Virus record (IMG/VR): IMGVR_UViG_3300005529_000005
Location: 1 to 64,000 of that record
Direction: 5' to 3' (one strand)
Length of the DNA: 64,000 bases
Source: a virus
Notes under the pieces: model-generated
What the model saw: only the letters and a program-made list of their open reading frames with translations
Told to the model about the DNA's origin: nothing
The model's database searches: none
Shown: in pieces, positions 36,793 through 48,888 of the stretch
How positions within the stretch are numbered: the stretch's first letter is position 1
Layout: each line of letters begins with the position of its first letter
Position numbers and translations under genes: made by a program

Positions 36793-36923
36793 CGCGCGAG
36801 GTCTCCCAACGCGAAACGTGCGCGCGAGGGCTGGCGGTCGGCCTCGTCGTCGGGTTCTTCGTAGGCCCGGTCTACTTCAAGTGGGTGTATCCCTTCCTCT
36901 ATCACCTATTCCTCCCGCAATGA
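36789..36923 (+). CDS. 44-aa membrane peptide
   Basis: ATG at 36789 overlaps the resolvase stop (ATGA) and its own stop overlaps the next ATG. One membrane helix GLAVGLVVGFFVGPVYFKWV followed by aromatic YPFLYHLFLPQ. Tight coupling on both sides supports that it is real. Confidence 0.5.
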   Translation: MTREVSQRETCARGLAVGLVVGFFVGPVYFKWVYPFLYHLFLPQ

Positions 36924-38269
36924 CCGGCGGCGGTCTCCGCTCGATCCGCCCCCTGAAGGCGGAGTCGCTGCGCGGCGTTCAGCCCGCCGAGGTCGGTCGC
37001 GTGCGGCCGAAGTTCGAGTGGGTCGACCCGACGACGCTGTTCGTCGAGGAGGACTACCAGCGTGAGATCGCGGAAAGCGGCACCGCGCTGATTCGGAAGA
37101 TCGTCGGCGGGTTCAGCTGGGCCCGGTTCAAGACGCCCATCTGCGTCCGCCTCCCGGACTCGGGGAACATCCTCGTCTGCATCGACGGTCAGCACACGGC
37201 GACGGCGGCCGCGACGCACCCGGACATCGACAAGATCCCGGTGATGGTGGTCTCGGCGGACGACGCCAAGGCGCGCGCCTCCTCCTTCGTCGGCCACAAC
37301 CGGGAACGGCTCGCGCTGACGGCGCCGATGATCTACCGCGCCGAGCTCGCCGCCGGGGAGCCTCTCGCGCTCACCGTCGCGCGAGCGTGCAAGGCCGCCG
37401 GCGCGACGGTGTTGCCGACGTCTATCAGCCTCAACCGGGCGACGGAGGTCGGCGCCACGATCGCGGTCGGCGCGCTCAAGGCCATCGTGAAGACCGACGG
37501 GGAGGACGGGCTCGTGCGCGTTCTCCGCGTGCTCGTCGCGGCGAAGCGCGGCCCGATGAAGGCCGGAGAGATCACGGCGGCCGGCCTGGTCCTGAGGTCC
37601 TTCAATCCCGACTCCGGGATGGACGACGCGCTCTCCGCCGTGATCTCGAGCAAGACGGCGGAGAGTTGGGCGGCGATCGCGGCGACGGCCGTCGCGGAGA
37701 GCGGCGTGACCTCCACCGACGCGACGGCCTCGGCGTGGCTGCGGGCGCTGAACGTGCGCGCGCCTGTGAAGGAGAAGTCGCGCTTTGACAAGCCAGAAGC
37801 CGAATCCGTCAAGCGGGAACCGGAACCTGTAAAGCCCCCGCCCCGACCGGCGCCAAGCGTCCCGCCCCGAGCGGCGTCCCCTGCCAAGCCCGCTGCCCCT
37901 TCTCCCGTCAGCGCAAGCGCGCCGGCGAGACCGCCGCCCCAGGTCAAGCAGGCTCCTCAGGACGCGGTCGGCGAGACGATCGTTCGCAACGGCGTCACGC
38001 TCTGGCCAGGCGGACGCCTGGTCCACCGCGGCGCGGAGGTCAGGCTCGGGCCCGAGGAGGCGAACTTCGTGACGATGCTGCTGCGCGTGATGCCCGCCAT
38101 CCTCGGCGGCGACCGGATCGCGGCGAAGGTCTACCCGGGCCGCTCGGCGGGTCAGGATCTTCTTCGCGGGCTTCTGCCCGACCTTCAGGCGACGCTCGCC
38201 CGCGCGCGCCTGACCATAAAGGTCGTGACCAAGATCGGCTACACGCTCTTCGACCTCGGGCCCACGTAG
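36920..38269 (+). CDS. ParB-domain protein with C-terminal winged helix
   Basis: 449 aa. Residues about 30-130 are a ParB/Srx-like domain (EEDYQREIAESGTALIRKIV, GGFSWARFKTPICVRLP, IDGQHTATAA). Middle part is helical; residues about 295-350 are a Pro/Ala linker. The end (LGPEEANFVTMLLRVMP, TIKVVTKIGYTLFDL) is like an OmpR-type winged helix. Could act as regulator or DNA-binding nuclease; whether it acts on the parS site at 54963 is unknown. Confidence 0.65.
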   Translation: MTGGGLRSIRPLKAESLRGVQPAEVGRVRPKFEWVDPTTLFVEEDYQREIAESGTALIRKIVGGFSWARFKTPICVRLPDSGNILVCIDGQHTATAAATHPDIDKIPVMVVSADDAKARASSFVGHNRERLALTAPMIYRAELAAGEPLALTVARACKAAGATVLPTSISLNRATEVGATIAVGALKAIVKTDGEDGLVRVLRVLVAAKRGPMKAGEITAAGLVLRSFNPDSGMDDALSAVISSKTAESWAAIAATAVAESGVTSTDATASAWLRALNVRAPVKEKSRFDKPEAESVKREPEPVKPPPRPAPSVPPRAASPAKPAAPSPVSASAPARPPPQVKQAPQDAVGETIVRNGVTLWPGGRLVHRGAEVRLGPEEANFVTMLLRVMPAILGGDRIAAKVYPGRSAGQDLLRGLLPDLQATLARARLTIKVVTKIGYTLFDLGPT

Positions 38270-38358: not shown

Positions 38359-39009
38359 ATGCAGAAGGTCGCTCCGAAGCGGAACGTCCGCCAGCGGATG
38401 AACGGCCGCGCGCTCCTTCGCGCGCTCCCCGACCGCTGCGCCGCGCTCGCGATCGTGGACCCGCAGTATCGCGCCGTCCTCGACCGTCAGGCCTACGGGA
38501 ACGAGGGCGCGCGGCAGAAGGGGCGCGCGGCCCTCCCCCAGATGACCGACGCCGACGTCGCCGGGATGGTCGAGGAGGTCGAGCGCGTCCTGAGGCCGAG
38601 CGGTCACCTCGCGCTCTGGATCGACAAGTTCACCCTCGCGACCTGCCACTACCGGGCGTGGCTCGCGCGCACGGAGAGCCTCGCGGTCGTCGACCTGATC
38701 ACCTGGAACAAGCTGCGGATCGGGATGGGGCGACGCGCGCGCTGCGTCGCGGAGTTCGTGGTGATCGTCCAGAAGGACCCGATCCGCGCGAAGGGCGTCT
38801 GGGGCGACCGCGCGATCCCCGACTGCTGGCCGGAGTATCAGGACCGCTCCGTCCACCCGCACGCGAAGCCGCGCCAGCTCACGGAGCGCCTCGTGCGCGC
38901 CGTCACGCGGCGCGGGGACCTCGTCGTCGACCCCTGCGCCGGCGGCTACGGGGTCCTGGACGTCTGCCGCGACACCGGCCGAGACTTCGTGGGGTGCGAC
39001 CTCCTATGA
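38359..39009 (+). CDS. DNA methyltransferase, N6-adenine/N4-cytosine (beta class)
   Basis: 216 aa. Motif IV is DPQYR (usually DPPY) at LAIVDPQYR; then HPHAKPRQLTERLVRAV and VVDPCAGGYGVLDVCRDTGR, FVGCDL (motif I at the C-terminal end), the beta-class order. It modifies phage DNA in the cytoplasm, probably to evade host restriction. The Gln in the catalytic motif is unusual and worth testing. Confidence 0.7.
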   Translation: MQKVAPKRNVRQRMNGRALLRALPDRCAALAIVDPQYRAVLDRQAYGNEGARQKGRAALPQMTDADVAGMVEEVERVLRPSGHLALWIDKFTLATCHYRAWLARTESLAVVDLITWNKLRIGMGRRARCVAEFVVIVQKDPIRAKGVWGDRAIPDCWPEYQDRSVHPHAKPRQLTERLVRAVTRRGDLVVDPCAGGYGVLDVCRDTGRDFVGCDLL

Positions 39010-39215
39010 CCCGCTCTGTACTGATCGACGAAATGAAGGAAGGCTACCGGGACGGGCTCGACCCCGATTCGCCCGAGCCGTCGGCGAACCGCTCCGCGAG
39101 CTACCGTCACGGCTTCCAGGTCGGCCGCAACGACCGCGCGGGCGTCCCCGGGAAGGGCGCCGCGCGCAACCTCGTCGACGCGACCCGCGCGCTCCAGGAG
39201 GACGAGAAGCAATGA
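39006..39215 (+). CDS. Small unknown protein
   Basis: 69 aa, ATGA overlap at both ends. VLIDEMKEGYRDGLDPDSPE and NRSASYRHGFQVGRNDR: the YRDGxxPDxPEPxxNRSxxYRHGFxxGRxDR plan is common for small phage proteins of unknown function. Confidence 0.5.
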   Translation: MTRSVLIDEMKEGYRDGLDPDSPEPSANRSASYRHGFQVGRNDRAGVPGKGAARNLVDATRALQEDEKQ

Positions 39216-40039
39216 GCGATCCGCGCCCGATGCCGCTCGACACGTCCGCCTACCTCTCCGACACGGGGCACCTCTCGACGATCGAGCACGGCGCCTATCT
39301 CCTGATCCTCATGGCGCTGTGGCGCTCACGGGACGGCTCCCTCGACGGCAGCGACCAGTATCTCGCGCGCGTGACGCGGATGACGATCGGGCGCTGGAAG
39401 CGAGTCGCGACCACGATTCGCGCGCTCCTCCTGACGAAGGACGGACGGGTCAGCCAGAAGCGTGTCAACCGCGATCGCGACCGCTTAGCCCCCGGTTCGG
39501 AATCCAACTCCGATCAAAAAAGGAGTCCGGGTGAGAATCCGAACCGCGAGGCTAAGCCGTTGAAAAATAATAGGGCGCCTCCCAAACAGGCGCCGCCGGG
39601 CGGAGTCGGCTCTTTCTCTCTTGAAGGGGAGAAGGATTCGAATCCCTCAGTTGATCGAAGAAAGACAAAGGGCCGAATCCTCCCGCCGGACTGGCGGCCG
39701 CGAGACCAGGAGCGGCTCTACGGGCGGACCGTCCTTCACCTGACCGACGGCCAGGTCGACGCGGCGGCCGAGAAGATGCGGCGGTGGGCGGTCTCGAACC
39801 AGCACCGCGCGGTAGCCCGAAAATCAGACTGGGACATGACCTTCCGCAACTGGCTAGACTCGGAGTCGGAGCGTAGGTCGGCCCACCCCAACGCCCCGCC
39901 GCCGGGCAAGTCCGGCGGGGGAGGCTTCGCCGCAGTTTTCGAGGAGATGCGAGAGACGAACCTCGCGAGACAGGAGGACCACCATGACGACCGCGATGAC
40001 GCTGAGCCCGCCCGCCTCATCCCCGCCCGCCGCGCCTGA
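39212..40039 (+). CDS. DUF1376-type replication protein
   Basis: 275 aa. MPLDTSAYLSDTGHLSTIEH, AYLLILMALWRSRDGSLDG is the DUF1376 N-terminal domain, used by phage replisome organisers. The linker (residues about 90-150) is AT-richer and low complexity, as in hypervariable joints. C-terminal part RILPPDWRPRD, MRRWAVSNQHRAVARKSDWD, FRNWLDSE is the domain that contacts helicase or DNA. Overlaps the next gene by 56 bases. Confidence 0.65.
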   Translation: MSDPRPMPLDTSAYLSDTGHLSTIEHGAYLLILMALWRSRDGSLDGSDQYLARVTRMTIGRWKRVATTIRALLLTKDGRVSQKRVNRDRDRLAPGSESNSDQKRSPGENPNREAKPLKNNRAPPKQAPPGGVGSFSLEGEKDSNPSVDRRKTKGRILPPDWRPRDQERLYGRTVLHLTDGQVDAAAEKMRRWAVSNQHRAVARKSDWDMTFRNWLDSESERRSAHPNAPPPGKSGGGGFAAVFEEMRETNLARQEDHHDDRDDAEPARLIPARRA

Positions 40040-40862
40040 GGCCGTCGCGCGCGCGCTGACCGCGCTCACGGGGGAGCGCGATCGCGCCGGCGTCCCGATC
40101 GCCAAGCGCGCGCTGACGGAGCCGGAGAAGGCGCTCCTGAAGCTCCGGCTGAACGACCTGCGGCCGTTCGTCGACCCCGCGAGCATCGACCGCAAGGCGC
40201 AGGAGATCACCGCGATGCTGATGGGCTTCGGCGGCCAGTCGCTCACGGCGGAACAGGCGCGGCTGACGGCGGCGCAGTACGCGCGGACGTGCGCGGACCT
40301 CCCGCTGTGGGCGGTCTCTCGCGCGTGCCACCGGTTCGCGGCCGGGCAGGTGAAGCCGGAGGAGATCGACGAGGAGAGGATCAGCCTGACGTTCCGGCCG
40401 ACGACGGCGCAGCTCTACCAGGTCGCGGCCGCGATCGCGAAGCCCGTCCTTGAGGAGCGGTTCCGGATCAGCGCGGTGCTGCGCGCGACGGTGCTCCTGC
40501 CGAGGAGGGAGCCGACCGAGGAGGAGAAGGCGGCGGTCGCGGAGAAGATACGGGACCTCACCGCGAGGCTCGGCGCGGGGAACGCGGAGAGGGACGCGGA
40601 GCGCACGGGGCGCCTGATGGTCGCGGCGCGGGAGAGCCGCCAGCAGAACGCGCGCCTGATCGAGCGGGAGTACCGCGCGGCGGGGCTCGAGCCTCCCCCG
40701 TGGGTAGGCGACATGCCGCCGGCGTCGCTCTCGTTGATGCTGAGCGTGGGCTACCGGATCGAGGAGGACGCGCGCGGGAAGAAGATGCTGGTCAGACCCG
40801 CGCCGCCCCCGCCGGCCGAGCGCAGGAAGCGCGCCGAGCTCGACGACGAGATTCCGTTCTGA
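39984..40862 (+). CDS. Replication-associated protein, SSB-like acidic tip
   Basis: 292 aa. Helical throughout (KALLKLRLNDLRPFVDPASI, AQYARTCADLPLWAVSRACH, RFAAGQV). The C-terminal ELDDEIPF is very close to the SSB tip. Immediately after the DUF1376 gene, so helicase loader or primosome partner is a fair guess; similar proteins occur in rhizobial prophages. Confidence 0.5.
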   Translation: MTTAMTLSPPASSPPAAPEAVARALTALTGERDRAGVPIAKRALTEPEKALLKLRLNDLRPFVDPASIDRKAQEITAMLMGFGGQSLTAEQARLTAAQYARTCADLPLWAVSRACHRFAAGQVKPEEIDEERISLTFRPTTAQLYQVAAAIAKPVLEERFRISAVLRATVLLPRREPTEEEKAAVAEKIRDLTARLGAGNAERDAERTGRLMVAARESRQQNARLIEREYRAAGLEPPPWVGDMPPASLSLMLSVGYRIEEDARGKKMLVRPAPPPPAERRKRAELDDEIPF

Positions 40863-40894
40863 CCACCGAAAGTTTTGCAACAGGGAGAAGACCT

Positions 40895-41656
40895 ATGAGA
40901 GTAGCCGACCACGTCCTGAAGGTTTTGAGCGCCAGCGCCTTCGACGGCGACAAGCTCGTCCTGCCGCCCCGCCAGCTGGACCGCGACGTCTATCTAGAGG
41001 TCGCCAAGGTGATCGAGGCCGCCGGCGGCAAGTGGAATCGGAAGGCGAAGGCCCACGTCTTCGACGGCTCCGCCGAGGACGCGATCGAGCCGGTCATGCT
41101 GACGGGAGAGGTCACCAGGGTTCAGCAGGAGTTCGGGTTCTTCGAGAGCACGGCCGCCGTGGTCGCGCGGATCATGGCGCTCGCCCACCGGATCGAGCCG
41201 GGCATGCGCATCCTGGAGCCGTCGGCCGGCCGCGGCGCGATCGCGGTCCCGTTGATGAAGGCGGGGGCGGAGGTCCACACGTGGGAGATCCTGCCGAAGA
41301 ACGCGGAGACGCTGCGCGCGGCGGGCCTGAGGCACGTCCACGTCGGAGACTTCCTCGCGAGCGACCCAGTCCCCGGGTTCTACCACCAGGTCTTGATGAA
41401 CCCGCCGTTCGGCCGGCGCGCCGACGTCGACCACGTCCTCCACGCGGCGCGCAGTCTCAGGAGCGGCGGGACGCTGGTGTCCGTCATGTCGGCCGGCGTG
41501 ACGTTTCGCCAGGACCGGAAGACGCTGTCCTTCCACGATCAGGTCAGGCGCATGTCGCTCGGCGTCCACGTCGAGCCGCTGCCGCCGCTGTCCTTCCGGG
41601 AGTCCGGGACCGACGTGAACGCCGTCCTGATCGCCTTCACGCTGGTGGCGCAGTGA
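40895..41656 (+). CDS. N6-adenine-type DNA methyltransferase (gamma-like)
   Basis: 253 aa, ATG at 40895 after CAACAGGGAGAAGACC. N-terminal GGKWNRKAKAHVF is the DUF4942-type strand found in such enzymes. Motif I ILEPSAGRGAIAVPLM, acidic motif II VHTWEI, motif IV MNPPFGRR (NPPF). Probably N6-adenine methylation. Overlaps the following C5 enzyme start by GTGA. Confidence 0.75.
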   Translation: MRVADHVLKVLSASAFDGDKLVLPPRQLDRDVYLEVAKVIEAAGGKWNRKAKAHVFDGSAEDAIEPVMLTGEVTRVQQEFGFFESTAAVVARIMALAHRIEPGMRILEPSAGRGAIAVPLMKAGAEVHTWEILPKNAETLRAAGLRHVHVGDFLASDPVPGFYHQVLMNPPFGRRADVDHVLHAARSLRSGGTLVSVMSAGVTFRQDRKTLSFHDQVRRMSLGVHVEPLPPLSFRESGTDVNAVLIAFTLVAQ

Positions 41657-43914
41657 TCGGCGCGGCGACGATCCAGACGGAGGTCCGCCACGCGCACCTC
41701 TTCTGCGGGATCGGCGGCGGCGCCGTCGGCTTCAACCGGGGGAGCGCGCGCGTCGGGAACACGGAGGCGCGCTTCGTGTGCGTCGGCGGGATCGACTCGG
41801 ACCCGGCGGCGTGCCGGGACTTCGAGCGCAAGGCGCGCGCGCCGGCGACGTGCCGGGACCTCTTCTCGCTCGACCAGTACCGGGACTTCCACGGGCGCGA
41901 CCCGGCGCCCGGGTGGGAGGAGGCGGGACCCGACGCGCTCCACCGCGCGTTCAGGCTGCGGCCGCACATCGTGTTCCTGAGCGCGCCGTGCAAGGGCTTC
42001 TCCGGCCTGCTGTCCGAGACCTCCTCCAAGACCGCGCGCTATCAGGCCTTGAACGGCCTGACGCTGCGCGGCGTGTGGCTCCTGCTGGAGGCCTACAAGG
42101 ACGACCCGGTCGAGCTGCTCGTCTTCGAGAACGTCCCGAGGATCGCGACGCGCGGGCGCTGGCTGCTCGACCAGATCGTCGCGCTGCTGCGCGCCTACGG
42201 CTACGCGGTCGCGGAGACGACGCACGACTGCGGGGAGCTGGGCGAGCTCGGCCAGAGCCGGAAGCGGTTCCTGCTCGTCGCGCGCCACCAGGAGAAGGTC
42301 CCGCCGTTCCTCTATGAGCCTCCGAAGCATCGGCTGCTCGGCGTGGGCGACGTGCTCGAGCGTCTCCCGATGCCGCTGACGGGTGAGGGCGGAGCGATGC
42401 ACCGGATGCCCGCGCTCCAGTGGAAGACGTGGGTCCGTCTGGCCTTCGTGCGCGCCGGCGCCGACTGGCGCTCGCTGAACGACCTCGCGGTCGAGGGCGG
42501 GTTCCTGAAGGACTTCGGGATCGTCCCGGCCGGCCCGTGGCGAAGTGACGTGCTCGGCGTCATGAACTGGACCGACACGGCGGGGACAGTCACGTCCCGC
42601 TCGGGCCCGACGAACGGCCGCTTCGCGGTCGCGGACCCGCGCGCGGGGGAGCTGGCTAGCAAGGACCGTCAGGCCTACGGCGTGGGCGCGTGGGAAGACC
42701 CGGCCGCGACGGTGACCTCCGCGCGCTCGCCCGGTCAGGGGCGCTTCTCCGTGGCGGACCCGCGCTTCGCGCAGGAGCGGCGCAAGGCCGCCTTCGGCGT
42801 GAGGGGATGGGAGGAGCCCGCCGGCGTCGTCCAGGGCGAGAGCCTGCCGAGCAACGGCTCCTTCGCCGTCGCTGATCCCCGGCCGCCTGAGCCCATCCGT
42901 GGGGGAAAATATCGGGTGACCAGGATGGACGAGCCCGCCGGGACGGTGATCGCGTCCTCGACCACCGGGAACGGCGCCTTCGCGGTCTCCGACCCCCGGG
43001 TGGACGGCCACCCCCGGAGCGTCCAGCTCGGCGTGCGGGAGTGGAGCGAGCCGTCCGGGGTCGTCACGGGTCAGATGGCGGCCGGTCAGGGTCCGAACTC
43101 CGTCGCGGACCCGCGACTCGGCGGGAAGCGGTTCAACACGACCTACAGGATCGTGCGATGGGACGAGACCGCGCCGGCGGTCGCCGGCCCGGGCGGACCA
43201 GGCGGGGGGCTGGCGGTCGCCGACCCGCGCGCGACGCACGGTCCCAACGCTCACCACAACAAGATGCGGGTCGAGCCGTGGACGGACCCGTGTCACGCCG
43301 TCACCGGGACCGACCGCGTCGGGAGCGGCGCGCTGTGCGTCGCCGACCCGCGCTGGAGGGACGGCCGCGACGCCTACCTCTCCGCCGGGCACTACGGCGT
43401 GGTCCCCTGGACGCGGCCGTCGCGCGCCGTCTTCGGCCACGGTCAGCACGACAACGGCTTCAACTCCGTCGCTGACCCGCGACCGGATGGGAAAAACTCG
43501 TCCACCGACGAGTCGTGCGGGATCAACGGCTTGGGAGCCGAGTGGACGAGTCCGCGGGAAGAACCCGAGAAGTCGTCCATCCTCCTGCCCGCCCCCGACG
43601 AGCGCCTCGTGTGCGTCATCTTCGCCCGCGACGGGACGTGGCACCGGCCCTTCACCACGCTGGAGCTGGCGGCTCTGCAGGGCCTCGTCGACCCGGAGGA
43701 GCAGTTCGAGCTCGACGGCCTCTCCGACGCGGCGTGGCGGGAGCGAATCGGCAACTGCGTCCCGCCGCCCTCGGCGACGGCGATCGCGAGCGTGATGGGA
43801 GAGACGCTCCTCCTCGCGTGGGCGGGGGAGACGTTCAAGCTGAGCGCCGCGCCGATCTGGGTCAGGGACGTCGCGGTCGGGCTCTCCGTGCGGCCGCAGG
43901 AGATCGACCAATGA
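41653..43914 (+). CDS. C5-cytosine DNA methyltransferase with eight repeated TRD-like units
   Basis: 753 aa, GTG start at 41653. Motif I HLFCGIGGGAVGF (residues 15-27), catalytic motif IV APCKGFSG with Cys113, motif VI ENVPR with Glu159, motif VIII QSRKR at 201-205, and late motifs FTTLELAALQG and IGNCVPPPSATAIA. Between about residues 300 and 610 lie eight units of the form WxEPAGTVxxxxxxxNGxFAVADPR, 35-45 residues each. Ordinary C5 enzymes (350-450 aa) have one target-recognition domain, so this could have several specificities or a changed target. Confidence 0.85.
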   Translation: MIGAATIQTEVRHAHLFCGIGGGAVGFNRGSARVGNTEARFVCVGGIDSDPAACRDFERKARAPATCRDLFSLDQYRDFHGRDPAPGWEEAGPDALHRAFRLRPHIVFLSAPCKGFSGLLSETSSKTARYQALNGLTLRGVWLLLEAYKDDPVELLVFENVPRIATRGRWLLDQIVALLRAYGYAVAETTHDCGELGELGQSRKRFLLVARHQEKVPPFLYEPPKHRLLGVGDVLERLPMPLTGEGGAMHRMPALQWKTWVRLAFVRAGADWRSLNDLAVEGGFLKDFGIVPAGPWRSDVLGVMNWTDTAGTVTSRSGPTNGRFAVADPRAGELASKDRQAYGVGAWEDPAATVTSARSPGQGRFSVADPRFAQERRKAAFGVRGWEEPAGVVQGESLPSNGSFAVADPRPPEPIRGGKYRVTRMDEPAGTVIASSTTGNGAFAVSDPRVDGHPRSVQLGVREWSEPSGVVTGQMAAGQGPNSVADPRLGGKRFNTTYRIVRWDETAPAVAGPGGPGGGLAVADPRATHGPNAHHNKMRVEPWTDPCHAVTGTDRVGSGALCVADPRWRDGRDAYLSAGHYGVVPWTRPSRAVFGHGQHDNGFNSVADPRPDGKNSSTDESCGINGLGAEWTSPREEPEKSSILLPAPDERLVCVIFARDGTWHRPFTTLELAALQGLVDPEEQFELDGLSDAAWRERIGNCVPPPSATAIASVMGETLLLAWAGETFKLSAAPIWVRDVAVGLSVRPQEIDQ
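42547..43480 (+). repeat. Protein-level tandem repeat (8 units) inside C5 methyltransferase
   Basis: Units end in FAVADPR, FSVADPR, FAVADPR, FAVSDPR, NSVADPR, LAVADPR, LCVADPR and NSVADPR. Each is preceded by a WxxPxxxVxG strand (WTDTAGTVTS, WEDPAATVTS, WEEPAGVVQG, MDEPAGTVIA, WSEPSGVVTG, WDETAPAVAG, WTDPCHAVTG, WTRPSRAVFG). DNA copies have diverged, so the expansion is old. Confidence 0.85.
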
Positions 43915-44117
43915 GCAGACGCTATGCCGTGGTTTTTCCCGACGGCTCGATGTCCGTGATGGCTGAGCCCAAGACCGGTCACGAAGCCGCCTCCTATCGC
44001 GGAATGGCGAAGGAGGAGCGTGACGGCTGGAATGAACGGGAGCGTAAATCGAAGTCGAAGAGCTTCGCCAAGCTGGCGACGGTTGAGGTCTCCGACGTGA
44101 AGGAGCTAAGACGATGA
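43911..44117 (+). CDS. Small unknown protein between methyltransferases
   Basis: 68 aa, ATGA overlap at both ends. RRYAVVFPDGSMSVMAEPKT looks like a small beta unit, followed by a charged helix (KEERDGWNERERKSKSKSF). May be a partner or regulator of the methyltransferases; no direct evidence. Confidence 0.45.
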   Translation: MSRRYAVVFPDGSMSVMAEPKTGHEAASYRGMAKEERDGWNERERKSKSKSFAKLATVEVSDVKELRR

Positions 44118-44929
44118 CTCGCGAGACCGCCCCGAGGTTCTCGGGGATCGGCGGCCACCACAGCCACAAGGCGGGGACCGTCGAGTGGATCACCCCGCCG
44201 GACGTCATAGCGGCGCTCGGGCCCTTCGACCTCGACCCGTGCTCCTCGCTAGCCCAGCCGTGGCCGACCGCGGCGCGCGCCTTCACCCGGACCGACAACG
44301 GCCTGACGCGCGCGTGGGAGGGGCGGGTCTGGCTGAACCCTCCCTACGCGAACGGCGTGATCGAGAAGTGGCTCGCGCGCATGGCGGAGCACGACCGAGG
44401 GACGGCGCTGATCTTCGCGCGGACGGAGACCGACGCCTTCTTCAGGTTCGTGTGGGAGCGCGCGACGGCGCTCCTCTTCATGCGCGGCCGGATCAACTTC
44501 CACTTCGGGGAGCCGTGGCTCGACCAGAAAACCGGTGTCCACTATCAGGTCGGCGATCGCGCCCCCGGGAACGCCGGCGCGCCGACCGTGCTGTGCGCCT
44601 ACGGGGTCGACGACGCGGACGTGCTGGCGGCCTGCCGGATCGACGGCCGCTTCGTCCCGCTCCGCCTCCCGCGCTCAGTGGTCGTGTCGATTTTCTCGAC
44701 CTCAAACGAGGAGGCAAAAAGTGTCGTCACCTGGCGGGAGGCCCTCGCCGGCTTCTTCGCCGAGCGCGAGGGGCCGGTCGTCCTCGAGGACCTCTACCGC
44801 GCCTTCGCGACGCACCCGAAGGCGGCGACGAACCGGAACGTCCAGGCGAAGCTGCGCCAGCAGCTCCAGGAGGGACCCTACCGCCGGGTCGGTCCTGGTC
44901 TTTGGGAGGCGGCTGAACAGGGAGCGTGA
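44114..44929 (+). CDS. Phage N6-adenine methyltransferase (Dam-like, PF05869 type)
   Basis: 271 aa. EWITPPDVIAALGPFDLDPC, then RVWLNPPYANGVIEKWL with catalytic NPPY, then TALIFARTETDAFF and LLFMRGRINF: the standard order for phage Dam-like enzymes. Extra C-terminal domain of about 75 residues (WREALAGFFAEREGPVVLED, LYRAFATHPKAATNRNVQAK) looks like a winged helix and is not usual for the family. Confidence 0.85.
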   Translation: MTRETAPRFSGIGGHHSHKAGTVEWITPPDVIAALGPFDLDPCSSLAQPWPTAARAFTRTDNGLTRAWEGRVWLNPPYANGVIEKWLARMAEHDRGTALIFARTETDAFFRFVWERATALLFMRGRINFHFGEPWLDQKTGVHYQVGDRAPGNAGAPTVLCAYGVDDADVLAACRIDGRFVPLRLPRSVVVSIFSTSNEEAKSVVTWREALAGFFAEREGPVVLEDLYRAFATHPKAATNRNVQAKLRQQLQEGPYRRVGPGLWEAAEQGA

Positions 44930-44931
44930 CC

Positions 44932-45129
44932 ATGGCATGCGACGCAGCGATCCGGCACGTCAGGCGGGTGCTGGACGAGAGGTTCCTGAGCATGAACGCC
45001 AGCGACGTCTACGCCGAGGTCAGGTGGTGGACCCCGGACACGATCGTCGAGGCGCTCGACTCGCTCGTCGCCGCGCGGGCCGCGATCAAGGTCGAGGACC
45101 GCTACCACGTCCTGGGACCGCTCCGGTGA
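44932..45129 (+). CDS. Small winged-helix-like protein
   Basis: 65 aa. ATG at 44932 with GGGAG 8 bases upstream is preferred to GTG at 44926. HVRRVLDERFLSMNASDVYA, VEALDSLVAARAAIKVEDRY have the look of a compact winged helix. GTGA overlap with the next gene. Confidence 0.5.
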   Translation: MACDAAIRHVRRVLDERFLSMNASDVYAEVRWWTPDTIVEALDSLVAARAAIKVEDRYHVLGPLR

Positions 45130-45329
45130 GCGCGGCGCGGGGCGACGAGGTCGTCTACCTCTCCCTGACGGGGGAGACGTGGGACGCCGTGGTCGCGGCG
45201 GTCGGTCCCGAGGACCGCGTCACCCTCCTCGTCGGGAGCTTCGAGCTCGAACTGAGCCGCGTTCCCCTTGACGACACCCGCACTCTTCCTGGATCGTGGT
45301 CCCCGCTCGGACAGGGAGAGGGCGATTGA
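45126..45329 (+). CDS. Small unknown protein
   Basis: 67 aa, GTG at 45126. GDEVVYLSLTGETWDAVVAA and RVTLLVGSFELELSRVPLDD: small beta-rich fold. Overlaps both neighbours by 4 bases. Confidence 0.45.
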   Translation: MSAARGDEVVYLSLTGETWDAVVAAVGPEDRVTLLVGSFELELSRVPLDDTRTLPGSWSPLGQGEGD

Positions 45330-45928
45330 CCAAGAGACCCAAGCCGGCCGCGGCCGTCGACTTCGACGGGAGGGACGTACCCGCGATGCGGCCCGTCATG
45401 ACGCCGCTGACGAAGATCGTCCCGTACCCGCTCAACCCGCGCACGCACCCGCCCGCTCAGGTCGCGCTCCTCGCCGGCATGATGACGAAGCACGGCGTCG
45501 ACCAGCCGATCGTCATGCGCGAGGAGGACGGGTTCATCCTGAAGGGTCACGGGCGGCGCCTCGCGGCGATCGCGGCCGCGATGGACGCCTTCCCGGTGAT
45601 CTGGCGCGCCGGCCTCTCGGAGGAAGAGGCGCGCGCGATGCGCATCGAGGACAACCAGGTCGCGCTGCTCGCCGGTTGGGACCGAGAGTTGATCCACCAG
45701 GAGGTCGTCAGCCTGAAGACGGCGGGCTACGACGTGTCGACGCTCGGCTTCGGCGACGCGCAGCTGGTCCAGTTCACCACGACGCCGGGACCGCCCGCTC
45801 AGTTCCCCGCCTTCGGGGAGAACATCCCCACCGACTTCTGCTGCCCGAAGTGCGGCTACAAGTGGTCGGGGAAGCCGACGCCCGAGTCGGACGGCGACCG
45901 CGCGGCTCCCAAGCGGAAGAAGGCGTGA
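45326..45928 (+). CDS. ParB-like nuclease-domain protein with zinc ribbon
   Basis: 200 aa, TTG start at 45326 overlapping the previous stop, with AGGGAGAGG upstream. KIVPYPLNPRTHPPAQVALL, GVDQPIVMREEDGFILKGHG, RRLAAIAAAM, IEDNQVALLAGWD is the ParB/Spo0J N-domain common in phages beside DNA methyltransferases. C-terminus FCCPKCGYKW is half of a zinc ribbon. Other phage members are fused to methyltransferases; here it is separate and just upstream of one. Confidence 0.75.
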   Translation: MTKRPKPAAAVDFDGRDVPAMRPVMTPLTKIVPYPLNPRTHPPAQVALLAGMMTKHGVDQPIVMREEDGFILKGHGRRLAAIAAAMDAFPVIWRAGLSEEEARAMRIEDNQVALLAGWDRELIHQEVVSLKTAGYDVSTLGFGDAQLVQFTTTPGPPAQFPAFGENIPTDFCCPKCGYKWSGKPTPESDGDRAAPKRKKA

Positions 45929-45929
45929 T

Positions 45930-47597
45930 GTGGCTCTCCTCCTGCGGATCAAGGATCCCCAGTTCTTCCGCAAGCGGAGCACCGGGCAACCGGTGCGCAC
46001 CATCGACCTCGACGCGGAGCCGTGTCCGACGATCATGGCGAACGGGATCAGGAGCGTCACCGTCGGGCGCTACGAGCTGGTCGACGACGGGAGGCCCCCG
46101 GTGATCGACGCGACGAAGCCTCCCTACCGCGTCCCGTCCATGGCGGAGATCGCGGCGGTCGAGCCGAACGGGCTGAAGGTGATCTCCACGTTCGCGGGAT
46201 GCGGCGGCTCCTCGCTCGGCTACCGGATGGCGGGCTTCAAGGTCCTATGGGCGTCGGAGTTCGTCGAGCGCGCGCGGCTCGACTACGAGGCGAACGCCGC
46301 TCAGGGGACGGTCGTCGACGGCCGCGACATCCGCCAGGTCGACCCCCTGGAGGTCCTGAGGACGGTCGGCCTTCAGCCGGGCGAGCTCGACGTGCTCGAT
46401 GGCTCCCCGCCGTGCGCGTCCTTCTCGACCTCCGGCAAGCGCGACAAGAAGTGGGGAACGGTCAGCAAGTACAGCGACCGGGAGCAGCGCACCGACGACC
46501 TCTTCTTCGAGTTCGTTCGGTTCGCGAAGGCGATGCGGCCTCGCGTGTTCGTGGCGGAGAACGTCTCCGGGCTCGTGAAGGGCGTCGCGAAGGGCTACTT
46601 CCTGGAGATCCTGGCCGCGATGAAGAAGGTCGGCTACCGCGTGGAGGCGCGCCTCCTCGACGCTCAGTGGCTCGGCGTCCCGCAGCAGCGGCAGCGGATC
46701 ATCTTCGTCGGCGTGCGCAGGGACCTCGGCCTCGAGCCCGCCTACCCGTCGCCGCTGCCCTACCGATATAGCGTACGCGACGCTCTGCCCTGGATCAGCC
46801 GCGCGATCCACGACACGTCGGGAGACCGAAGCGTCGGGGAAATCACGAACCGGCCGGCGCCGACGATCACGGTGGGCGGCCTGCAGCCCAACGCCTGCCA
46901 CTTCAAGGTCGTCGAGGCGACGGTCTTCCAGAGCGACAAGTACACCCACCTGAAGGACGTGACCGACACGCCCGCGCTGACGATCCGGGCGACGCCCGGC
47001 GAGGGGAAGAAGAAGCCCTTCGTGGTCGAGCGCGTCGTCCAGGGTCCGGAGGTCGACCAGCGCAACGAGGGTCGCGACCTGAGCGACGGCCCCGCGCCGA
47101 CGGTCGTCGCCGGCGACGCTGAGAAGCGCACGCCGCGCCAGTTCGTGGTCGAGCAGTTCGTCGTGGAGCCCGAGACCGACATCAGCGGCCAGGCGATCGG
47201 CAAGGAGTACGACCGCCTGAACCCGGGGCAGGAGTCGGACAAGTACTTCAACCTGAAGCGCGCGCCGATCAGCGAGCCGTGCCAGACGGTGACCGCCTCG
47301 GGCGGGATGAACTCCGGGATCGCGAGCGTGACGCACCCGACGGAGAAGCGGAAGTTCTCGATCGCCGAGCTGCGCCGCGTATGCGGCTTCCCGGACGACT
47401 TCGCGCTCGGCGGGACCTACGCGCAGCAGTGGGAGCGGATGGGGCGCGCGGTCCCGCCGGTGATGATGGCCGCGATCGCGCGCAGCGTCGCCGGCGTGCT
47501 GAAGGAGGCGAAGAATGTGCGGCCTGCTCGGAGCGTTCGATCTCCCCCGGTTCGACGTCGCCGCGCGGCTCGACCTGATAGCGCATCGCGGGCCTGA
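45930..47597 (+). CDS. C5-cytosine DNA methyltransferase 2
   Basis: 555 aa, GTG at 45930. Motif I TFAGCGGSSLGYRMAG, motif IV SPPCASFSTSG with Cys162, motif VI AENVSG, motif VIII QQRQRIIFVG, C-terminal KFSIAELRRVCGFPDDF. The target region has four PxxT(I/V) units (RPAPTITVGG, TPALTIRAT, GPAPTVVAG, EPCQTVTAS), and a fifth-like EPCPTIMANG sits at the N-terminus before motif I. Final 28 residues overlap the asparagine synthetase gene and are Arg-rich. Confidence 0.85.
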   Translation: MALLLRIKDPQFFRKRSTGQPVRTIDLDAEPCPTIMANGIRSVTVGRYELVDDGRPPVIDATKPPYRVPSMAEIAAVEPNGLKVISTFAGCGGSSLGYRMAGFKVLWASEFVERARLDYEANAAQGTVVDGRDIRQVDPLEVLRTVGLQPGELDVLDGSPPCASFSTSGKRDKKWGTVSKYSDREQRTDDLFFEFVRFAKAMRPRVFVAENVSGLVKGVAKGYFLEILAAMKKVGYRVEARLLDAQWLGVPQQRQRIIFVGVRRDLGLEPAYPSPLPYRYSVRDALPWISRAIHDTSGDRSVGEITNRPAPTITVGGLQPNACHFKVVEATVFQSDKYTHLKDVTDTPALTIRATPGEGKKKPFVVERVVQGPEVDQRNEGRDLSDGPAPTVVAGDAEKRTPRQFVVEQFVVEPETDISGQAIGKEYDRLNPGQESDKYFNLKRAPISEPCQTVTASGGMNSGIASVTHPTEKRKFSIAELRRVCGFPDDFALGGTYAQQWERMGRAVPPVMMAAIARSVAGVLKEAKNVRPARSVRSPPVRRRRAARPDSASRA

Positions 47598-48888
47598 CGG
47601 CTCCGGGGTCGCGTCGTCCGGGCCTGCGGTCCACGGCCACGTCCGCCTCGCCCTCCTCGACCTGAGCGAGGCCGGCGCGCAGCCGTTCAGGCGAGGCGAG
47701 GGCCTCCTCTCCTTCAACGGTGAGATTTGGAACTGGCGCGCCGTCCGGGAGGAGCTGGAGCGCGCGGACGAGGTCTTCCGCACGTCGTGCGACACGGAGG
47801 TCCTCGCGGCCGCGCTCGACCGTTGGGGCGTCGGGGAGACGCTCCCGCGCCTCGAGGGCATGTTCGCCTTCGCGTGGTCGAAGGGGCGGACGCACGTCCT
47901 CGCGCGCGACCGCTTCGGGAAGATCCCGCTCCACGTCTCCCGCTTCGCGCGGTCCTTCGTCTGGTCGAGCGAGATGAAGGGGCTCGGGCCCGAGCACCCG
48001 TCGGCGCCGCTCCCGCCCGGGACGATCCTCGATCTGACCACCGGGGAACTGGAGACCTGGTACGCGCTCCCGCGGCGCCACGCGGTCGAGTCCCCCGCGG
48101 CGATCGCGGCTGACCTCCGCGCCGGCGTGGCGGCCCGGATCGTCTCCGACGCGCCGCTGTGCTGCCTGATCTCCGGCGGGCTCGACTCGTCGCTGATCCT
48201 GACGGAGGCGCGCCGGCTGAAGCCAGACGTCGTCGCCTTCACCGCCCGCCACGACGACCGCTCCGCCGACCTGAGGGCCGCGCGGCGCCTCTGCGCCGAG
48301 CTCGACGTGAGCCTGGTCGAGGTCCCCGTGGGCGCGCCGACGGCGGACACGCTCGCGGCGGCCGTCCGCGCGATCGAACTGCCGAGCAAGGCCCAGGTGG
48401 AGATCGCGGCGCTGTGCGTGCCGCTCGCTCGCGCGATCGCCGCGGAGGGCTTCAAGGCCTGCCTCTCCGGGGAGGCGGCGGACGAACTCTTCGGCGGCTA
48501 CGGCTCGATGTGCATCAAGGGGGCGCGCGCGGACGACGAGGCGTGGCGCGCGATCCGCGTCGCTCAGATCGAGAAGATGGCGCGCGGAAACTTCGTGCGG
48601 TGCAACAAGGCGTTCATGGCGGCGGGCGTCGAGTGCCGCCTCCCGTTCATGGAGCGACGGCTCGTGGAGCGCGTGATCAACCTGAGGAAGGTCGACTGCC
48701 CGCCCGGGAAGAAGGCGCTGAAGGAGGCCGCGCGCGGTCTCGTCCCGCGGTGGGTGATCTCCCGCACCAAGCAGACGTTCCAGGGAGGCGCGGGGATGGA
48801 CGAGGCGGCGGCGCGGGCGGTGGCGAACCCGAAGGTCTTCTACGGGGCAGAGTTCCGGTCAGCCTTCGGCGCGGCCGTCGCGGCGTAG
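47515..48888 (+). CDS. Asparagine synthetase (glutamine-hydrolysing), AsnB-like
   Basis: 457 aa. Begins MCGLLGAF with Cys2 as glutaminase nucleophile, then AHRGPDGSG, FNGEIWNW and SCDTEVLAAALDRWG (class II amidotransferase domain, to about residue 190). The synthetase domain has the PP-loop SGGLDSSL at about 220 and SGEAADELFGGYGS. Shorter than cellular AsnB (about 550), the C-terminus being trimmed. In a phage next to DNA-modifying genes it may aminate a small molecule or a base rather than make asparagine; this is inference. Confidence 0.85.
   Translation: MCGLLGAFDLPRFDVAARLDLIAHRGPDGSGVASSGPAVHGHVRLALLDLSEAGAQPFRRGEGLLSFNGEIWNWRAVREELERADEVFRTSCDTEVLAAALDRWGVGETLPRLEGMFAFAWSKGRTHVLARDRFGKIPLHVSRFARSFVWSSEMKGLGPEHPSAPLPPGTILDLTTGELETWYALPRRHAVESPAAIAADLRAGVAARIVSDAPLCCLISGGLDSSLILTEARRLKPDVVAFTARHDDRSADLRAARRLCAELDVSLVEVPVGAPTADTLAAAVRAIELPSKAQVEIAALCVPLARAIAAEGFKACLSGEAADELFGGYGSMCIKGARADDEAWRAIRVAQIEKMARGNFVRCNKAFMAAGVECRLPFMERRLVERVINLRKVDCPPGKKALKEAARGLVPRWVISRTKQTFQGGAGMDEAAARAVANPKVFYGAEFRSAFGAAVAA

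What the first reader, a model, noticed from the sequence alone, without database searches (positions are those of the whole stretch)
41653..43914. C5 methyltransferase with eight repeated target-recognition-like units
A 753-aa enzyme keeps all catalytic motifs but has eight WxEPxxTV...VADPR units between motif VIII and the C-terminal motifs. Known multispecific phage C5 enzymes (SPR, phi3T type) carry several target-recognition parts but not this regular array. It may methylate many sequences, or wrap along DNA.
Basis: partly seen in the sequence, partly recalled or inferred. Interest (0 to 1): 0.75.

Follow-up and report, generated by a model that had tools for sequence, protein, structure and literature searches.

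The report
Phage methyltransferase with eight swappable DNA-readers
A phage enzyme that puts methyl marks on DNA appears to carry a row of eight different small DNA-reading modules, drawn from a pool that related phages shuffle among themselves, so that one enzyme could protect the phage against many bacterial restriction enzymes at once.

Summary
In detail: a 753-aa C5 cytosine methyltransferase (41653-43914, +) with all catalytic motifs carries eight 38-43 aa units ending V[AS]DPR. It has relatives in phages and prophages of Proteobacteria. In 71 full-length proteins the array holds 2 to 10 units on a conserved core. Among 350 units from 63 non-redundant proteins, no protein holds two units of one type, while the same types recur in other proteins in shifted positions; closely related P. 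aeruginosa phages differ by clean unit swaps. Each unit centres on the target-recognition ('TL') motif. The unit profile's only PDB matches (weak, E 1.5) lie at M.HaeIII residues 227-242, inside its target-recognition region. Positions that differ between types but are conserved within a type coincide best, of 255 possible placements, with the two DNA-contacting trimers defined on M.HhaI and M.HaeIII. Best reading: a multispecific anti-restriction methyltransferase whose units are separate, exchangeable target-recognition modules. It works like the Bacillus phage enzymes (SPR, phi3T, H2), but is a larger, combinatorial version. No methylation was measured; targets are unknown; AlphaFold2 did not resolve the array. 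DNA wrapping is not supported. New variant of a known kind.

The parts
41653..43914 (+). whole C5 methyltransferase gene, 753 aa, GTG start overlapping the upstream stop (GTGA)
41653..42387 (+). catalytic core, residues 1-245, motifs I-VIII
   Evidence: PF00145 and PHROG 32684; invariant residues
42388..42525 (+). conserved segment before the array, residues 246-291
   Evidence: many invariant residues between 249 and 287
42526..42642 (+). unit 1 (residues 292-330), position-locked first unit
42643..42765 (+). unit 2 (331-371)
42766..42882 (+). unit 3 (372-410)
42883..42999 (+). unit 4 (411-449), type C, the commonest inner type (31 of 350 units)
43000..43116 (+). unit 5 (450-488), type V
43117..43230 (+). 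unit 6 (489-526), type J
43231..43353 (+). unit 7 (527-567)
43354..43482 (+). unit 8 (568-610), position-locked last unit
43483..43914 (+). C-terminal part, motifs IX and X, and stop codon

Best explanation
This is a solitary phage DNA (cytosine-5) methyltransferase with one catalytic core and eight distinct target-recognition modules in tandem. Each module of about 39 aa presents two short DNA-reading stretches around a TL-type hinge, as the single target-recognition region of M.HaeIII or M.HhaI does; one module at a time would dock next to the flipped cytosine and select its own short sequence. The phage genome is thereby methylated at several sequences and escapes several host restriction enzymes. 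Modules are gained, lost and exchanged as cassettes among related phages, and arrays keep only different ones. Shown here: core motifs, unit array, variable unit number, cassette exchange, absence of duplicates, type-specific conservation at the DNA-contact positions. Inferred: methylation activity, number and identity of targets, one-at-a-time docking, protection from restriction.
For: Unit number 2-10 in 71 full-length relatives on one conserved core. 0 of 63 proteins holds two units of one type; inner duplicates 0 against 13.6 (sd 2.9, minimum 4) in 2000 shuffles. Inner units match across proteins at shifted ordinals more often than at the same one, 734 to 624. Natural swaps between close phages: Baskent_P6/LKA5 and Dobby/D14A. 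6 of 6 array pairs differing by one added unit add a type not yet present. TL motif and DNA-contact trimers of C5 recognition regions as published (PMC2413257); unit profile lands only on M.HaeIII 227-242 in the PDB (E 1.5). With each column left out in turn, the published contact trimers rank 1 of 255 placements for type-specific conservation. Phage context with further DNA methyltransferases and no recognised restriction enzyme among the tested neighbours.
Against: No methylation data and no target could be predicted. The T of the TL motif is kept in only 3 of 8 window units. The PDB match has E 1.5. AlphaFold2 gives the array pLDDT of about 25-45. The shuffles ignore kinship of the proteins. 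The cluster threshold that defines types is my choice (the identity count does not depend on it).
Confidence: 0.8

Rival explanations
1. Only one or two units (for instance the position-locked first and last ones) read DNA; the inner units are a silent reservoir that recombination can bring into play.
For: First and last unit types keep their places (A in 47 of 350 units, always last; B in 36, always first). The T of TL is missing in 5 of 8 window units.
Against: Inner units keep their contact positions under constraint within types (0.73-0.93 among similar inner units, 0.06-0.29 among dissimilar ones); silent copies should decay. Inner units are exchanged and added as new types.
Confidence: 0.1
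2. The array is a DNA-binding or wrapping scaffold, or gives one relaxed specificity by adding up weak contacts.
For: Regular spacing and a shared frame.
Against: A scaffold has no need for units that are all different: no protein has two of one type and no inner pair reaches 60% identity where shuffling gives 15.2. The type-specific positions are those that read bases in known enzymes.
Confidence: 0.07
3. The enzyme makes a base modification other than 5-methylcytosine.
For: The residue after the catalytic cysteine is Lys (PCK) and invariant in 35 of 35 aligned sequences, where Gln is usual (recalled). A C5-carboxymethyltransferase structure is among the fold matches (8yf3, rank 35), as are many ordinary C5 methyltransferases ranked higher.
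Against: Catalytic Cys, ENV, QxRxR and GN.VP are all kept. No partner enzyme for such a modification was recognised among the ORFs tested between 36818 and 48888.
Confidence: 0.03

Closest known systems
Multispecific C5 methyltransferases of Bacillus phages (M.SPRI, M.phi3TI, M.H2I, M.rho11SI, SPbeta mtbP)
   Same: One catalytic core with several target-recognition domains in tandem in one phage polypeptide (passages in PMC12707154 and PMC8936443); modules of 38-54 aa that abut after a common segment (recalled from Trautner 1996). SPBc2 mtbP has TL motifs at T315 and T362, 47 residues apart.
   Different: Eight units here and 2-10 in the family, all in one frame ending VADPR; SPbeta-type phages are not among the tblastn matches at 1e-5; arrays are combinatorial with locked ends. 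The Bacillus enzymes have tested targets, this one none.
M.HaeIII and other single-target C5 methyltransferases
   Same: Catalytic fold (1dct rank 10); TL motif in register with each unit; contact trimers at the same spacing.
   Different: One target-recognition region there, eight in tandem here.
M.BssHII and M.phiBssHII
   Same: Multispecific C5 enzymes (titles seen in reference lists).
   Different: M.phiBssHII has recognition domains at separated locations (title only); here there is one continuous array.

Membership tests
C5 cytosine DNA methyltransferases (PF00145) | Profile match above the curated cut-off and conserved motifs I, IV, VI, VIII, IX, X | tested here: met
   55.4 bits against 22; motifs in P0001 and conserved
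C5 cytosine DNA methyltransferases (PF00145) | Transfers a methyl group to C5 of cytosine | not testable with these tools
   needs expression and methylation mapping
Multispecific phage C5 methyltransferases (Bacillus type) | Several recognition modules of about 38-54 aa in tandem between motifs VIII and IX | tested here: met
   eight units of 38-43 aa; comparison sizes are recalled
Multispecific phage C5 methyltransferases (Bacillus type) | A TL motif in each module | tested here: inconclusive
   position and spacing fit in all eight, but T itself is kept in 3 of 8
Multispecific phage C5 methyltransferases (Bacillus type) | Common conserved segment before the modules | tested here: met
   residues 249-287 rich in invariant positions; homology to the Bacillus segment was not tested
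Multispecific phage C5 methyltransferases (Bacillus type) | Sequence kinship with SPbeta-group enzymes | tested here: not met
   no Bacillus phage among 36 tblastn records at 1e-5; it therefore works like them but is not filed as a member of that lineage
Multispecific phage C5 methyltransferases (Bacillus type) | Methylates several targets, one per module | not testable with these tools
   no methylation data
Type II restriction-modification system | Adjacent cognate restriction endonuclease | tested here: not met
   none recognised among 8 neighbouring ORFs by Pfam and 10 by PHROGs; an unknown nuclease is not excluded

The most novel reading that the evidence does not exclude
Phages of Proteobacteria share a horizontally moving library of dozens of C5 target-recognition cassettes (73 types among 350 units here). 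They assemble it into non-redundant arrays of up to ten on one methyltransferase, with position-locked first and last units, giving each phage its own multi-target anti-restriction 'key ring'. The arrays would hold more targets than any C5 enzyme known to me, and the natural swaps would allow a residue-to-base code for these modules to be read out.
Probability: 0.55. Interest if true: 0.78.

Novelty: new variant of a known kind. Interest (0 to 1): 0.64.

Why it matters
If true, one small enzyme would methylate up to eight (in relatives ten) sequences, and phages would adapt to host restriction by swapping 39-residue cassettes. The family supplies a natural, aligned library of recognition modules on an interchangeable core. 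That makes the old question of how C5 target-recognition regions encode sequence directly testable, and offers parts for designed cytosine methylation.

Tried and rejected
Structure prediction of the window protein (mean pLDDT 57.5, array about 25-45) and of the two-unit relative L076 (mean 64.3, array low) did not resolve the units; nothing about the array is concluded from them. A DNA-level tandem repeat was looked for and not found. Target prediction from the N-TL/C-TL trimers gave no match to the four-base signatures quoted in PMC2413257 (compared by eye). A homogeneous wrapping array was rejected as best reading because arrays never repeat a type. Nine paper searches found none that describes this family's array (open-licence library only). 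The second C5 enzyme of the window was checked as a possible close paralogue: only short, weak BLASTP matches (best E 0.001 for a single comparison).

Full report
What is there. The frame 41653-43914 (+) encodes 753 aa with high third-position GC like its neighbours. Its GTG start overlaps the stop of the preceding methyltransferase-like ORF in a GTGA. Pfam finds PF00145, and PHROG 32684 covers residues 8-245. The window lies in a 74,093-base IMG/VR virus record with terminase, portal, head and baseplate genes, so this is a tailed phage. Between motif VIII (201-205) and motif IX (665-676) lie a conserved segment of about 45 residues and eight units ending V[AS]DPR. The units are far more alike than shuffled units, but they are not a DNA-level repeat and share only 39-54% identity at best with one another.

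Relatives. tblastn finds 36 phage records, mostly Pseudomonas phages, with Sinorhizobium PBC5, Marinobacter PS3, Achromobacter CF418P1 and two short phiCTX fragments. IMG/VR gives 37 loci and the genome collection 22. Of 78 ORFs collected, 71 are full length. All 71 carry the unit, in counts 2:1, 3:1, 4:12, 5:29, 6:13, 7:5, 8:5, 9:4, 10:1. The array therefore grows and shrinks in whole units on a core that stays alignable throughout (nearest cores to the window's 73-76% among the 63 non-redundant proteins).

Units are types, and types move. After removing redundancy (63 proteins, 350 units), average-linkage clustering gives 73 types, 32 of them single. Every unit has its best match in another protein (350 of 350; partly trivial, because near relatives are included), and the most alike pair inside any protein is 56% identical (871 pairs). 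No protein has two units of one type. In 48 distinct arrays, shuffling the inner units would give 13.6 duplicates (sd 2.9, minimum 4 in 2000 runs); a threshold-free count of inner pairs at 60% identity or more is 0 of 298, against a mean of 15.2 (minimum 7 in 500 runs). These shuffles ignore kinship and so overstate independence. Matching inner units sit at shifted ordinals more often than at the same one (734 against 624). Six array pairs differ by one added unit, always a type not yet present; eighteen differ by one substituted unit. At DNA level, phages Baskent_P6 and LKA5 have cores 93% alike and units I, G and A 96-99% alike, yet one has N where the other has E and C; Dobby and D14A have core, first three units and C-terminal part 93-100% alike, yet I+G against D. 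The last unit of that Dobby/D14A pair is only 69% alike, so exchange is not confined to inner units. Types A, O, U and ag are always last, B and M always first, which suggests a structural role of the ends.

Units read DNA. PMC2413257 (sections read) gives the TL motif of C5 recognition regions and, from the M.HhaI and M.HaeIII complexes, two DNA-contacting trimers spaced NNN-x10-TL-x3-CCC. A profile of 22 unit types finds, in all PDB sequences at E up to 10, only two entries, both M.HaeIII, at 227-242 (RVRQWNEPAFTVQASG), that is across T237-V238 (E 1.5): not significant alone, but in the right place and register. That register predicts contacts at -13..-11 and +5..+7. Over 13 types and protein pairs with at most 80% core identity (1153 same-type, 10200 different-type pairs), these columns are the same within types (0.81, 0.97, 0.80; 0.90, 0.86, 0.86) and different between types (0.14, 0.14, 0.37; 0.08, 0.10, 0.25), while the -7..-2 loop varies even within types (0.21-0.47). 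To limit circularity, each column was left out of the definition of similar units: of 255 combinations of one trimer left and one right of the TL, exactly the predicted pair ranks first; with the types it ranked 4 of 255. Position -12, which aligns with R225 of the M.HaeIII trimer SRN (numbering), agrees in 0.93 of similar and 0.09 of dissimilar pairs. Unconstrained loops would not behave so.

How it most likely works. One core, eight alternative readers: the segment 246-291 and the end units hold the array on the core, one unit at a time contacts the DNA beside the flipped cytosine, and each unit accepts its own sequence. The phage DNA becomes methylated at several sequences and resists several restriction enzymes. 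The genes around it fit counter-restriction: an N6/N4 methylase (38359-39009), a methyltransferase-like ORF (40886-41656), a Dam-type enzyme (44114-44929) and a second C5 enzyme (45930-47597), with no recognised restriction endonuclease. In 2 of 16 fetched phage loci a nuclease-inhibitor or restriction-alleviation gene is annotated nearby. Activity, targets and protection are inferred.

What speaks against. No target can be named. The T of TL is kept in 3 of 8 window units and in 33 of 73 type representatives; A is the next most common (27 of 73), and a T250G mutant of M.HhaI was crystallised with DNA (entry title), so loss of T need not mean loss of function, but some units may be silent. AlphaFold2 leaves the array unresolved.

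Comparison. Tandem recognition domains in one polypeptide are known from Bacillus phages (PMC12707154, PMC8936443, passages), with modules of 38-54 aa after a common segment (Trautner 1996, recalled; not held). SPBc2 mtbP shows two TL motifs 47 residues apart. The window enzyme works like these but shows no near kinship to them, carries more and uniform modules, and belongs to a family whose arrays are combinatorial. I found no paper that describes this family's array in nine searches of the open-licence library; REBASE and subscription journals were not searched. Hence: new variant of a known kind.

Noticed in passing
45930-47597 (+): A second C5 methyltransferase (PF00145, 176 bits) has four PxxT[IV] motifs between motif VIII and motif IX; 29 relatives that passed the filter show 0-3 (0:4, 1:7, 2:14, 3:4), and region length rises with motif number (r 0.68). 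The phage may carry two multi-target C5 enzymes.
   Followed up: partly
38359-47597 (+): Cluster of five methyltransferase or methyltransferase-like genes (N6/N4 type, methyltransferase-like 40886-41656, C5, Dam type, C5) with two ParB-like genes (36818-38269, 45296-45928) and no recognised restriction enzyme.
   Followed up: partly
47515-48888 (+): Asparagine-synthase-like gene with a glutamine amidotransferase domain directly after the methyltransferases; overlaps the end of the second C5 gene. Its role in a phage is unclear.
   Followed up: no
41986-41997 (+), residues 112-115 of the enzyme: Catalytic motif reads PCKG with Lys after the catalytic Cys, invariant in 35 of 35 aligned sequences, where Gln is usual (recalled).
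   Followed up: no
L053, L034, L005: Broken family members: in Pseudomonas phage PA8 (L053) and in L034 and L005 the gene is split over more than one frame; they were left out of the counts as not full length.
   Followed up: no
L040 (LKA5, Hollowayvirus) and L041 (Dobby, Citexvirus): Phages of different genera share the gene at 92% nucleotide identity in the core, so the whole gene moves between phage groups as well as its units.
   Followed up: partly
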